In this document: in pieces, positions 17,434 through 45,763 of the stretch
How positions within the stretch are numbered: position 1 is the first letter of the stretch
Layout: every line of letters starts with the position of its first letter
Assembly (NCBI GenBank): GCA_916610825.1
Contig: OU744451.1
Coordinates: forward strand, 11,348,864 to 11,412,863
DNA: 64,000 nt
From: Haliclystus octoradiatus
Taxonomy: Eukaryota > Cnidaria > Staurozoa > Stauromedusae > Haliclystidae
Direction of reading: 5' to 3'
Notes under the pieces: model-generated
Databases searched by the model: none
Told to the model about the DNA's origin: nothing
What the model saw: the letters and a program-made list of their open reading frames with translations, nothing else
Position numbers and translations under genes: made by a program

Positions 17434-20400
17434 ATGCGAATCGGTTGGATTATATGGCGGAGAGTCGGCATCAAGTCGGATCACTGGAGTTTATGTCGGT
17501 CATTGATCTTATTATTTATAACATTAGCTGAAATTACAAGTGGAAGCAATGCTCGTTCTCATAAACACCATAGTCATCACAATACTATTAGACAATTAAG
17601 ATCGCATTTACATAGAAAACATAAATATCATCAATCAAACAATGTGAAATTGGATCCTATGTATTCTAACAGCTGGGCTGTTCACATCGATCCCCCTCAC
17701 GGTCATGTGGCTAAAAGAATCGCCAAGAAACATGGATTTCATGTAGTAGGAAAGGTAAGCACTCACTAATTCACTATTGCAGCAGGAAGTGCAGATATTT
17801 GTATTTTTACTAGCACGTTAATAAAATGAGATAGATCTTCATTAAATGATTCAGTTGTATTTGCCCAATCAGTCCAACCAGAGGAATATGGGGTGACTAT
17901 TTCCTGCTTTCTACCAGGCTCACTGCATATTTCTTATGGTAGTACAGTATATATATATCGGTCAATACACGAATCGTACCGTTCGACTGTAATTCAATAG
18001 ATACTTCTGTTCTCTATCCACATGCCGTATGACGTCACAATATTTTCTACTATCTCGTATACCGAATAGTCCTGTTTGAAAACAGGAACTTTAGTTAGGG
18101 GAAGCAGCGTTAAATGGTCTATATATGTATATCTATGTATTTAGATAAATAATGCAAAGTTGTCCACACTTGTGTAGGTATAGTGCTGAATGATAAATTT
18201 AATCAAATGAATTGAATGAATGATTTATCAAATCAAAGATTTAATAAATAAATAAATAAAGTGAGTCAAAAAAGAGACATACCGTTCTTGCTACTCCCGA
18301 TGATCGCCGTATGGTGTGATCTAACTCGAAGTAGCGAGAACAGTATGTCTCCTTTTGACTCATTTTATTTATTTATTTATATACTAGCTCAGATGCTTAG
18401 CTCAGATGATTAGAGGATTAGCTCAGATGGCAGAGCAACCGAACTTCAGATCGAATCATATCTGATCGACTGTGGTTCAAATCCCCCTAAGGTCAACTCA
18501 GCCTTGACTTTATCTGAAACATCAAATGAGTACCATCTGAGGATGGCGGATGGAATGGTCCAGAGGGAATTGCATTGTGAGTAGCTGCGGCGCATCGTTG
18601 CGCATTGACAATTGAGACCTATCTGCCATGAAATCTGTTGAAATTGATCTGCAGTGTCGCGGCTGAGATCAACAAAGAGCGTTTAAAATCATTGCTCTCA
18701 GCGAAAAAAGCCACTCATCTAGAAATAGAGGAGTGGTACGGGTGCCTTCGGTAGGGCGACACCGTCTACATTACTTTTTTATATATATAAAATATGAGCT
18801 CTCAAAAAAACTAATAAACTAATAAACTCTGACAAAATAAACTAATTAATTAAAAAATAAACTAATCGGAATTAGTTTATTTGTCTGATGATTGCGTAAG
18901 CATGAAACTATTAGTAACAATTATGAATGTGTAGTCTTTGACTTCTTATATATATATATATAAAGTAATTGTGCGGGCAAAACATCAATTTGAGTGCTCA
19001 ATGCTAAAAGCAGAGCAATATAAATAGTAGATCAAAGATCACGAGTTTATTCCGTTACTCTGAGTTTCGCGTAAAGACGCTCTTCAGACGGTTTTATGTT
19101 TTGAATCAATAAAACCGTCTGAAGAGCGTCTTTACGCGAAACTCAGAGTAACGGAATAAACTCGTGATCTTTGATCTACTATTTACATATATATATATAT
19201 ATATATACTGAGAGTGATTGGTTAATCGCGTGCATGGGAGTGATGATGCATGCATGCATCCATGCAAGAAATGAATTTAAAAGTGACTTTCCTGCAATTT
19301 GATAACACTCTTTCATTGGTTAAGCCACATTGCAACACAGAGAGGGAGCTCAAATAGCATTATGGGAACTTTTAATTGTACAGTATTTAAATGTGTAGAA
19401 TTTAAGAATTTTTAATTGATATAGTAAACTCTAGTAGAATAATGATAAACAGCAATTGTAAATCTAAATACTTAGTCACACGCAGTTTAATAATTATATA
19501 TTTTATGGTTAAGCATTTAGGGGTATGGGTCGTTCAGTTTATGAACTATGACAGCTCGATCTGATCTCAACTCATTAGCGATCTGATGGCGTATATATAA
19601 CTCATGAATCTGTTTTATAAAAACCACTTAAAATATAGTTTTGATAGAAATTAAAGCGCTAGAAATGATAACGATGATAAAGAAATGATCCCGTTTGCGA
19701 AGGTATTTGAGTTCTTTTAATATGTCATGTTATTTTCACTCACTTGCAGATAGGAAACCTCCAAGGACATTTTCATTTCAAACATAACGATGTCCTTGGA
19801 ACTGGTAAAAATAAAGCCAAAGAAAAGACAGATCTATTGGTGCTCGAGAAAGAGGTTGGTACAACCGCCGCTTTCTTTTATTATCTTGCATCTCCTTCTG
19901 CTTTCCAGCTGTGATCTACTGACGAGGAGAAGGGAAACCGTTAGCTGAATAGCTGCACATAGATAATCTCTTTCAATGATCCGATATCAATAGAGTGTGT
20001 AATATATATTTGATCGAGCTATCCCTAAAGTTTAAAAAGTCTTATCTTTGCATTGCATTTCGTTGGAGCTGATAAATATTTTTCATATTTTATGTAATGT
20101 GAACTTGTGAAGCTCAGTGAATAAGTAGAGAGAGATTGATCGTGTGACAGTATTGACCATGTCAGTGTCATTAATTCTTTCCTCTTATCTACAAAAGGTC
20201 TGGGGGAATTTCCTCCTTATTAAAGAAAAAGAGTGCATTTATTAGCAAGCCTCTTTATTCTTTAGTGCACCATATATTTTTATGATAGAAAATAATGTCC
20301 AAAAATATGTAAATTAATGACTACATAAGGGACATCGCAACAAATTATATGGCTGGATATAAGTGAGACATGTTAGAGTTGCCTCTATAGTAACACTCAC

Positions 20401-43469: not shown

Positions 43470-45763
43470 CAATACCAACGATGCCGACGACAGTGAGATT
43501 GACGTACTTGGGGTATCGGCCGTGCAACCTAAGCCAAAATCAAAGTCCCACAAGCGCCGCGCCCTGATACCAACAAGGGTAAGAACGACAAACGTTCAAA
43601 AAGGGTCGAAACAAATCACTCCAAAGGTGACAAAAAGACCAATATGGCTACTAGAGGGATAAGCTATAACAAAAAGAACAAGACACAACAATGGAACAAG
43701 AAGAGTCACGCAGATTGACGCGGAATTGGTGGCCACGAAAAGCTTAATTACTCATCATTTAATCATTTTTGTTACCAGCTAAACAAACATTAAAATATTC
43801 CCCATCAATTAGGGGATATTTTAAAACGTACCCATGTTCTGTTAAATTTAATTATTACATATAACAATTTAGTATTACGGAATTACATACCAATGCAATT
43901 CAACATGACTCTTTAATCTCTGATATGTATTCAATGAGTATGCTAGAGGCACGGTTATGAACTTATCTGACACACAGTTTTCAGAAGACCACTTGAAGGT
44001 GCTATCATATGGCCCCAAGTTTATCAGCTCTCAAAACACTGGGCCAGACATAGTAAAAATTAAGAGAGACCTGATAATGTTCAAAAACCGTATCAGAAGG
44101 CTGTACCGATTTTGGCCTCCATACCAACAGGAGCCCGACGATAATCAACAGTCAACGGTACATCGCCTATATCGATCTTTGCGACGAGGCATAATCGGGA
44201 ATTCCTATAGCGGGAGTAAGTCGTTGGAAGTAACACTATCCCAACTTGACGCTCACATTGATAGTCTCTTGTACAGGCACAAAATGAGACAAGGACCAAT
44301 GAGCCAAACTCATAAAATCCTTAAGGAGATCATTATGATGAAGGACAAGCACAGACTTGTTTTTAAAATGCGTATAAAGGAGGAGCCTTAGTGATAATGA
44401 CCGTTAAACAATTTAACGGTAAAGTCTTGAAACAGTTACAGGACCATACTACATATCACAACTCAGGTAAAACCGACCCCACAAAACGCATGTGCTCTAC
44501 GATAGCGGCATTTCTCAAAAGGTTAACGCGTGAAGGATCGATTGATACCAATGCACAATCGCTACTAATACCTATGACAAACAGAACACGGGAGGGTCTG
44601 TTCTACATCTTACCTAAGATCCATAAAACTGACATTCCACGAAGGCCCATAGTCTCTAACCTGTAACTCACATACTGAGAGATTGTCAGCATTTGTGGAT
44701 GATGCTTTGAAACCACTTAGAAAGCATATCAAATCCCACGTGAGGGACACGCAAGATTTTCTAGAACAGATCAAACACATTAATATCAATGAGAAATGGC
44801 TACTCGTTACTCTTGACGTAAGTGCTCTCTATACCAATATAGAAGAGAAGCGTGGAATAGAGGCTATCCGGTCATTTCTGATAAAACACAATCGGATTTA
44901 CAACTAAGGACCTCCGATTCTGGCATTGCTTGATACAGTAGTATTCATATGATCCTATCGACAAATTATTTTATGTTCGATAACCAATTCTACCTGCAAG
45001 TATCTGGCATCGCAATGGGTACCAGATTTGCACCAAGCTATGCTGACATTTACATGGCTGAGGTAGAGGAACATTATATATCAAGCCAAGAGTACAAGCC
45101 AGCGTTTTGGGTTCGCTATCTGGATGACATATTGTTAATATGGTAACACGATAGCGACTCACTTAAAGCTTTCATCGGTGGTCTCAACAATGTGCGTCCT
45201 CGCCTGAAATTCACAGCAACAGTTTCACCAATGAATGTTGCATTCTTAGATATTAATGTCTACCCGCATGAGGGAAGACTAAAATCAGATTTGTACACCG
45301 AACCAACAGATGTACATAGTATTTTGCCTTCAATTAACAACACAACCCTGCTACAAAATGGGGAATAGTTAAAGCGCAAAATATTCGCTATTTACGCAAT
45401 ATATCTGATCAAAATATCCTCATCTTGCGCTTGTACACGTTGTATTTGTTGTTCTGTACTAAAGGCTACCCACAGAGGAAAACCTTTAACATAATACGCA
45501 ATACATACATCACACATTCGAAAAGACACTCTAAGAAAACGGAGCAGAAATCAATCACGCATCAAGTGAGAATGATCACACCATATCATCATTGCATTAA
45601 ACCAGCTTTCAATCATCTATTTGAGACTGTGTTAAAGCCACACTTTAACATTCATATGCAGTTTCATACCAATGAACCTGCAACAATCTACAATAGAGAT
45701 ACGAACTTAGCTGATCATTTGATTCGCACACGGGATGGTGGCTCACATGACTCATCACGATGA
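43470..45763 (+). pseudogene. Penelope-like element reverse transcriptase, decayed
   Basis: Coding-like pieces in several frames: a basic N-terminal stretch (43470-43740), 43957-44391, 44391-44666, 44683-44907, 44949-45146 and 45425-45763. RT hallmarks of PLEs are clear: LPKIHKTDIPRRPIVS, LVTLDVSALYTNI, SGIAMGTRFAPSYADIYMAE and the catalytic YLDDIL. The last piece holds the thumb and connector (RGYP-like KGYPQRK, YNRDTNLADHLIR). No GIY-YIG nuclease follows, so the copy lacks its C-terminus. Several frameshifts and stops make it non-functional. Confidence 0.88.

What the first reader, a model, noticed from the sequence alone, without database searches (positions are those of the whole stretch)
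19021..19185. Perfect palindrome putting a hammerhead ribozyme on each strand of a convertase intron
Seen: exact 77-bp arms with an 11-base loop. Each arm contains CUGAAGA, a G-C closed stem II, GAA, a 3-bp stem III, a GUA cleavage triplet and a fully paired stem I. Known: short-stem-III type I hammerheads occur in Penelope-like elements and retrozymes. Inference: either transcript strand could self-cleave, and in the sense strand this would cut the convertase pre-mRNA inside intron 1. Zero mismatches implies recent formation or gene conversion.
Basis: partly seen in the sequence, partly recalled or inferred. Interest (0 to 1): 0.82.

Follow-up and report, generated by a model that had tools for sequence, protein, structure and literature searches.

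The report
Palindromic scar of a ribozyme-carrying retroelement
The perfect palindrome is most likely a short two-sided insertion of a Penelope-type retroelement leader that carries a hammerhead ribozyme, one of dozens of such insertions in this genome, and as a group they record how the element copies itself into DNA.

Summary
The palindrome is real: exact 77-nt arms (19021-19097, 19109-19185) with a short-stem-III type I hammerhead on each strand. It is one of many: the core occurs 590 times in the genome with up to 3 mismatches (control 0), and 52 tight head-to-head pairs match one exact pattern (control 0). The arms are the leader of a Penelope-type retroelement (L042, L043), identified by architecture; protein libraries do not confirm it. 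Of 64 pairs, 63 carry a 61-nt tail on one arm only (57 by pattern, 6 by eye), and 52 of 63 sit beside (TA)n. This is known Penelope anatomy (PMC3846280, PMC11167929). Independent truncation of arms in longer pairs, no mixed subfamilies (0 of 56), and one locus with 5 and 7 laps of a 352-nt unit whose junction is found nowhere else favour two separately started cDNAs over hairpin self-copying. Covariation supports the hammerhead. Cleavage of the convertase pre-mRNA is not supported: predicted folding favours the hairpin at all nine lengths tested. Known kind; the mechanistic record is the interest.

The parts
19021..19097 (-). Tailed arm: Penelope-type leader (pLTR) copy on the minus strand, 77 nt
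19052..19091 (-). Type I short-stem-III hammerhead, predicted cut after 19056
   Evidence: covariation of the family
18960..19020 (-). Tail, 61 nt, 3' extension present on this arm only
19098..19108 (.). Centre of 11 nt, read as the joint of two cDNAs; differs between most copies
19109..19185 (+). Tail-less arm: leader copy on the plus strand, 77 nt
19115..19154 (+). Type I short-stem-III hammerhead, predicted cut after 19150
18948..18961 (.). (TA)n at the tailed end, presumed target site (overlaps the tail end by 2 bases)
   Evidence: (TA)5 lies just outside 52 of 63 related insertions
19187..19207 (.). (TA)n at the tail-less end, presumed target site

Best explanation
The palindrome is a very short insertion of a hammerhead-carrying Penelope-type retroelement. 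Proposed steps: (1) the element's RNA carries a hammerhead at the 5' border of its leader, followed by a tail bounded by two reverse-transcription start sites; (2) the element's endonuclease makes a staggered double cut in AT-rich DNA, here (TA)n; (3) both cut strands prime cDNA, one from the inner start site (tail-less arm) and one from the outer start site (tailed arm), on uncleaved leader RNA of the same species; (4) both cDNAs run to the RNA's 5' end, just beyond the hammerhead, and their ends are joined head to head with a little microhomology or filler; (5) filling in leaves a target duplication of roughly 10-18 bp. Shown by sequence: the head-to-head order, the one-sided tail, variable centres, target type, target duplications at several sites, arm lengths that differ either way, and the same subfamily in both arms. 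Inferred: that the two start sites and the double cut act as in the published Anolis element, that the recurrent arm end is the RNA 5' end, and the joining step. In the host gene the insert is most likely a passive intronic repeat.
For: Copies: 590 cores (300+290) with up to 3 mismatches, control 0; 52 pairs for one exact tight pattern, control 0. Coding parents: L042 and L043 carry long frames flanked by the same arms and tails, with a 2788-nt direct spacing in L043. Orientation: of the 95 exact cores listed on contigs C1 and C2, neighbours within 4 kb are -+ 18, -- 9, ++ 7, +- 1; in the first 100 listed places of a general short-hammerhead pattern, with families assigned by eye, same-family neighbours within 250 bp are -+ 12, -- 5, ++ 1, +- 0, and different-family neighbours +- 3, ++ 1, -- 1. 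Tail on exactly one arm: 57 of 64 by pattern, 6 of the other 7 by eye, 1 none (its arm is cut short), 0 both. Target: (TA)5 just outside 52 of 63 insertions against 0.6% of random 60-mers of the window; duplications readable where the site is not pure (TA)n, for example L015, L032, L035, L074, L080, L087, L088. Independent truncation: of 12 longer pairs, the tail-less arm reaches further 5' in unit coordinates by 98 nt or more in 4 (L042, L043, L048, L060), the tailed arm in 6, and 2 are about equal. Same template: 42 AA, 14 BB, 0 mixed among 56 typed pairs; within-pair distance at or below the observed mean in 0 of 2000 permutations for A and 2 of 2000 for B. Shared arm end: 17 of 32 B arms end at one nucleotide, 40 of 82 A arms at one of two adjacent ones. 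Literature: both strands cut and extended, two internal start sites bounding the tail, AT-rich targets, uncleaved RNA the dominant substrate in vitro (PMC11167929, main text read).
Against: The protein is not recognised: no Pfam hit to RT or GIY-YIG even at E 10, nothing relevant in NCBIfam or PHROGs, no PDB match at E 1, no significant similarity to an element of the same genome that Pfam recognises as GIY-YIG (L099), and an unusable predicted structure (pLDDT 36). The RT and GIY-YIG motifs are named from memory. In vitro the Anolis enzyme showed no difference in start site between strands (PMC11167929), so that paper does not explain the strict one-sidedness here. Lack of A/B mixing could also reflect activity at different times. 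Later deletions could mimic unequal arms, and arm ends in the family A loci are approximate because they were mapped with a family B unit at about 70% identity; in L043 the tailed side is longer in total, as it passes a whole unit. In 6 of 50 rows with both ends found, no target duplication was found (L033, L034, L037, L039, L077, L086), and in most others it is plain (TA)n and says little. The window copy's own duplication cannot be read and its arms do not reach the recurrent end.
Confidence: 0.72

Rival explanations
1. Self-priming: one cDNA or an antisense RNA folds back at its end and is copied on itself, giving a perfect palindrome, as proposed for Adineta vaga Penelope elements.
For: Arms of a pair are closer than chance and share variants; many centres are themselves palindromic AT-rich stretches; proposed in PMC3846280 (Discussion read).
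Against: A copy should not outreach its template or carry a tail that the template lacks, yet in L042, L043, L048 and L060 the tail-less arm reaches further 5' than the tailed arm. The tail-less arm generally ends at the same boundary.
Confidence: 0.18
2. A foldback DNA transposon (MITE-like) whose terminal inverted repeats happen to contain a hammerhead.
For: Inverted repeats, small size, TA-rich targets, high copy number.
Against: The unit is asymmetric, with a one-sided tail; centres differ in 58 of 64; direct tandem units exist (L043, L044); the same leader flanks long RT-like frames; readable duplications are longer than TA.
Confidence: 0.03
3. The insert acts on the host gene, either by ribozyme cleavage of the convertase pre-mRNA or as a long hairpin giving small RNAs.
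For: It lies between convertase-like coding pieces; the whole folds as one 77-bp hairpin.
Against: The hairpin is favoured over the ribozyme fold at every prefix tested. No transcript or small-RNA data. The same insert occurs at many other loci.
Confidence: 0.07

Closest known systems
PAc, a Poseidon-type Penelope-like element of Anolis carolinensis (PMC11167929; main text read, methods not)
   Same: Hammerhead in the pLTR, tail between two reverse-transcription start sites, AT-rich target, tandem arrangement, uncleaved RNA the dominant template in vitro.
   Different: There the start site did not appear to differ between strands in vitro; here one arm has the tail and the other does not in 63 of 64 pairs. 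Protein similarity was not tested against PAc.
Penelope families of the rotifer Adineta vaga (PMC3846280; passages and Discussion read)
   Same: Inverted pLTRs, most often head to head, a tail optionally on one of them, palindromes at the inverted junction, target duplications of 8-10 bp in the cases seen.
   Different: Low copy number there; self-priming was the preferred reading; the word hammerhead does not occur in its main text.
Metazoan non-LTR retrozymes (PMC7229834; passages read)
   Same: Short tandem units with a type I hammerhead; the 352-nt units of L044 lie within the sizes reported there.
   Different: L044 looks like an internal deletion of the coding element and is arranged head to head; no circular RNA was observed here.
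Small hammerhead variants of Penelope-like elements that cleave as dimers (Luense, Weinberg and Breaker 2017; title seen in a reference list; paper not held)
   Same: Small hammerheads of Penelope-like elements, by title.
   Different: Dimer cleavage not tested here.

Membership tests
Type I hammerhead ribozyme | Conserved core CUGANGA...GAA...UH with three helices, open at stem I | tested here: met
   both strands
Type I hammerhead ribozyme | Helices supported by compensatory change across families | tested here: met
   8 of 11 pairs change on both sides in 8 sequences; 97.7% of cells paired; partners slid by 1-3 columns give at most 44.4%; four of five measures exceed all 500 shuffles, the fifth (further pair types) is reached by 28 of 500. 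I chose the 8 rows; one (L062) is a different, canonical type; the rows were found partly by requiring pairing
Type I hammerhead ribozyme | Rfam model match | tested here: not met
   no match at gathering score in the window; 8 matches in the genome, best 30.9 bits against 34 for RF00163, none at the window
Type I hammerhead ribozyme | Self-cleavage | not testable with these tools
   Indirect only and mixed: of 37 arms starting at arm positions 30-52 in 22 shorter palindromes, 9 start exactly at the predicted cut, 7 one base on and 8 at position 47; in another sample 6 of 80 listed matches start there, against 3 and 4 at the neighbouring positions and 10 at position 47
Penelope-like element | Frame with reverse transcriptase and GIY-YIG endonuclease | tested here: inconclusive
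   Long frames in L042 and L043 with motifs recognised from memory; no Pfam, NCBIfam, PHROGs or PDB support; weak alignment of one GIY-YIG-like core to L099 (E 0.15, reversed control E 0.53)
Penelope-like element | pLTRs in tandem or inverted order with a tail on one | tested here: met
Penelope-like element | Hammerhead in the pLTR | tested here: met
Penelope-like element | AT-rich target and target duplication | tested here: met
   for the family, with exceptions; not readable for the window copy itself
Retrozyme | Circular RNA intermediate | not testable with these tools
   Only the tandem arrays of L044 (352 nt), which DNA-level expansion could also give

The most novel reading that the evidence does not exclude
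Each insertion is made from one RNA copied twice: the two cut strands each take one of the two start sites on the same RNA, so an insertion has exactly one tailed and one tail-less arm. When the hammerhead has first made a circle, both cDNAs run round it many times, as in L044, where 5 and 7 laps of a 352-nt unit with a junction found nowhere else in the genome meet head to head. The palindromes would then be a fossil record of two-sided copying of a single RNA, and their two kinds of arm end (hammerhead border, hammerhead cut) a record of how often the ribozyme had fired.
Probability: 0.33. Interest if true: 0.7.

Novelty: new member of a known kind. Interest (0 to 1): 0.47.

Why it matters
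How Penelope-like elements complete both sides of an insertion is open: the biochemical study read here (PMC11167929) leaves the later steps to be validated, and the genome study (PMC3846280) preferred self-priming. This genome holds dozens of short insertions with readable ends. They argue for two separately started cDNAs per insertion and give a simple rule (one tail per insertion) that an assay can test. They may also offer a way to estimate, from DNA alone, how often templates had been cut by the hammerhead.

Tried and rejected
Tried without result: Rfam at gathering and lax thresholds; RF00163 over the genome, which gave 8 matches below the cut-off at other loci and also rang in 11 of 14 control genomes, none over the cut-off; Pfam, NCBIfam, PHROGs and PDB for the element's frames; AlphaFold2 without an alignment (pLDDT 36, not used further); comparison with the frame at window 43924-44391 (best E 0.31) and with L099. 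Failed or faulty scripts were redone: by 24, by 41, the family A part (yardstick one base too long) by 47.

Considered and rejected: foldback DNA transposon; gene conversion; assembly artefact; a microRNA gene (the miRNA-like Rfam matches are all below gathering and reflect the palindrome).

Results against my reading. A peak of arm starts at the predicted cut is seen in the 22 palindromes (9 of 37 arms at position 43; 2e-5 if starts were uniform over 23 positions), but 44 (7) and 47 (8) are nearly as high, some of these are ambiguous through microhomology or point changes, and the separate sample does not show it clearly (6 at 43, 10 at 47; that pattern's reversed control gave 17 matches against 80, so part of the sample is chance). 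A direct pattern for starts at the cut gave 8 matches and one for a base later 4, controls 0; a few of these look like point changes. I do not count use of cut RNA as shown. In family A the outer stem I helix that I draw costs energy (-1.4 against -4.2 kcal/mol without it); in family B RNAfold draws it, in a fold that is not the hammerhead core. Seventeen of 82 family A arms share no upstream base with the yardstick; 12 of them belong to a subfamily whose upstream sequence differs. Exact-match arm ends can be overextended by chance in AT-rich centres. Within-pair similarity excludes neither two RNAs from one locus nor self-priming in the shortest palindromes.

Rows dropped: L055 from the arm-length comparison (unrelated filler in its centre); L028, L029 and L033 (copies of one duplicated segment with L025); L040, L041 and L089 overlap other loci and were not counted again; 8 of 64 pairs from the A/B typing because one or both arms could not be typed, and one A pair (L016) without a pattern-assigned tail from the distance test; 7 of 57 rows without both ends found. 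The 64 pairs include a few duplicated segments, so independent events are fewer. Genome counts are lower bounds where the tool says so; lists were cut by the tool (100 of 590, 50 of 52 pairs, 100 of 1516).

Full report
What is there. The window holds an exact palindrome, 19021-19097 with 19109-19185 around an 11-base centre. A structural scan finds two hammerheads in the window, one on each strand of this palindrome, and none in 100 simulated windows. Stem I is 4 bp, not long. The helices are supported by change on both sides across eight hammerheads that I chose from this genome (8 of 11 pairs), although Rfam does not match it at its cut-off.

It is a repeat. The first genome search scored 40 of 786 candidates and gave 96 matches on the two strands. 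The 36-nt core is present 590 times with up to 3 mismatches and its reversed control 0 times. An exact pattern for tight head-to-head pairs is found 52 times, control 0. A general pattern for short-stem hammerheads is found 1516 times, control 0.

Its anatomy is asymmetric. Copies show (TA)n, an inverted leader, a variable centre, a direct leader, a 61-nt tail, and (TA)n again. In the window the element lies on the minus strand, with its tail at 18960-19020. Of 64 pairs in fetched loci, 57 have the tail on exactly one side by pattern and 6 more by eye; one has none and a shortened arm; none has two. (TA)5 lies just outside 52 of 63, against 0.6% of random 60-mers of the window. Where the site is not pure (TA)n, target duplications can be read at several loci (11 to 18 bases as printed, of which some may belong to the tail's own end), while 6 of 50 rows show none. 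Centres differ in 58 of 64, so most palindromes were made one by one and are not copies of one master palindrome.

Its parent. Twenty regions, chosen mostly because two exact cores lay close together, show the same arms and tails, in L042 and L043 around long frames. L043 has two units 2788 nt apart in the same direction and a head-to-head joint; L042 is a long head-to-head pair. The frames carry RT-like and GIY-YIG-like motifs by my recall, but no library supports this. The genome also holds elements that Pfam recognises as GIY-YIG; one of them, L099, has a 792-aa frame that looks like a classical Penelope protein, with a hammerhead-like core repeated 2608 bp apart. Membership of the window's element in Penelope-like elements therefore rests on architecture: pLTRs in tandem and inverted order, one-sided tail, hammerhead in the leader, AT-rich target.

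How it forms. Published work gives two ideas. PMC3846280 (passages and Discussion read) preferred self-priming for head-to-head palindromes. PMC11167929 (main text read) showed in vitro that an Anolis element cuts and extends both strands and starts reverse transcription at two internal sites that bound the tail. Orientation here is biased as expected for either: of 95 exact cores listed on C1 and C2, neighbours within 4 kb are -+ 18 against +- 1. Three observations bear on the choice. First, arms differ in length either way: among 12 longer pairs the tail-less arm reaches further 5' by 98 nt or more in 4 (L042, L043, L048, L060), the tailed arm in 6 (L045, L046, L047, L049, L050, L052), and 2 are about equal (L051, L056). 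A self-copied arm should not outreach its template; later deletion is the escape. Second, both arms belong to one subfamily: 42 AA, 14 BB, 0 mixed of 56 typed, and within a subfamily the arms of a pair are closer than permuted pairs. DNA-level expansion of an inserted dimer could also give such arrays. The simplest account is two cDNAs, one from each start site, made on the same RNA species and perhaps on one molecule, then joined.

Where the arms end. In family B 17 of 32 arms end at the same nucleotide; in family A 40 of 82 end at one of two adjacent nucleotides. This lies at or next to the first base of the outer stem I helix, which RNAfold draws in family B but which in family A I drew by hand and which costs energy there. 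I read the shared end as the 5' end of uncut template RNA. A smaller set of 22 palindromes lacks the front of the hammerhead. Of 37 arms starting at positions 30-52, 9 start exactly at the predicted cut, 7 one base later and 8 at position 47; C1:4616279-4616322 is a gapless palindrome of two arms that both start at the cut. A differently drawn sample does not show the peak clearly. Use of cut RNA as template is therefore possible, not shown.

Effect on the host. The insert lies between a pro-domain piece and a catalytic piece of a proprotein convertase. The transcript of the palindrome folds as one hairpin at -135.9 kcal/mol, and in predicted folds of the growing transcript the second arm is paired to the first at each of 9 lengths tested. 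The isolated hammerhead prefers a different fold (-9.8 against -4.2 kcal/mol); the Anolis hammerhead showed no cleavage without protein (PMC11167929). I see no support for cutting of the convertase pre-mRNA, but no assay was possible.

Verdict. A real and well-formed feature, of a known kind: a head-to-head Penelope-type leader insertion. The genome-wide set is more interesting than the single palindrome, because it lets published ideas on the insertion mechanism be tested by counting. Searches for print on this point: in an open-licence library only; the 2014 and 2017 papers on Penelope hammerheads are not held, so I cannot say that the counts or the one-tail rule are unpublished.

Noticed in passing
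window 18881-18920 (+): A second hammerhead of another family (CTGATGATTGCGTAAGCATGAAACTATTAGTA) with a U-U mismatch at the base of stem II; missed by the strict scan, but the same core recurs many times in the first 100 listed places.
   Followed up: partly
window 18244-18380: Imperfect inverted repeats (28-nt and 27-nt arms) that may be a decayed hammerhead-element palindrome upstream in the same presumed intron; by eye only.
   Followed up: no
L044 567-4689 (C2:13912466-13916588): Tandem 352-nt units, each with a hammerhead and the start of the element's frame fused to its 3' region, 5 junctions on one strand and 7 on the other, head to head; junction found nowhere else in the genome.
   Followed up: yes
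L098 179-690 (C1:11374778-11375289): A 59-bp tandem array of hammerheads (6 copies on minus, 2 on plus), far shorter than the retrozyme units in PMC7229834; perhaps local DNA expansion.
   Followed up: partly
L062, L063, L065 near 1500: A different, canonical-looking type I hammerhead (CTGATGAGTCC...) in the same genome, best Rfam score 30.9 bits.
   Followed up: no
L099 361-2739 (C2:28185260-28187638): An open 792-aa frame, GIY-YIG by Pfam and RT-like by eye, of a classical-looking Penelope element with a hammerhead-like core repeated 2608 bp apart.
   Followed up: partly
L055 566-766: About 200 nt of sequence unrelated to the element between two head-to-head leader arms.
   Followed up: no
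window 18390-18500 (-): A tRNA-like stretch, perhaps a SINE head; seen by eye only, no tRNA scan was run.
   Followed up: no
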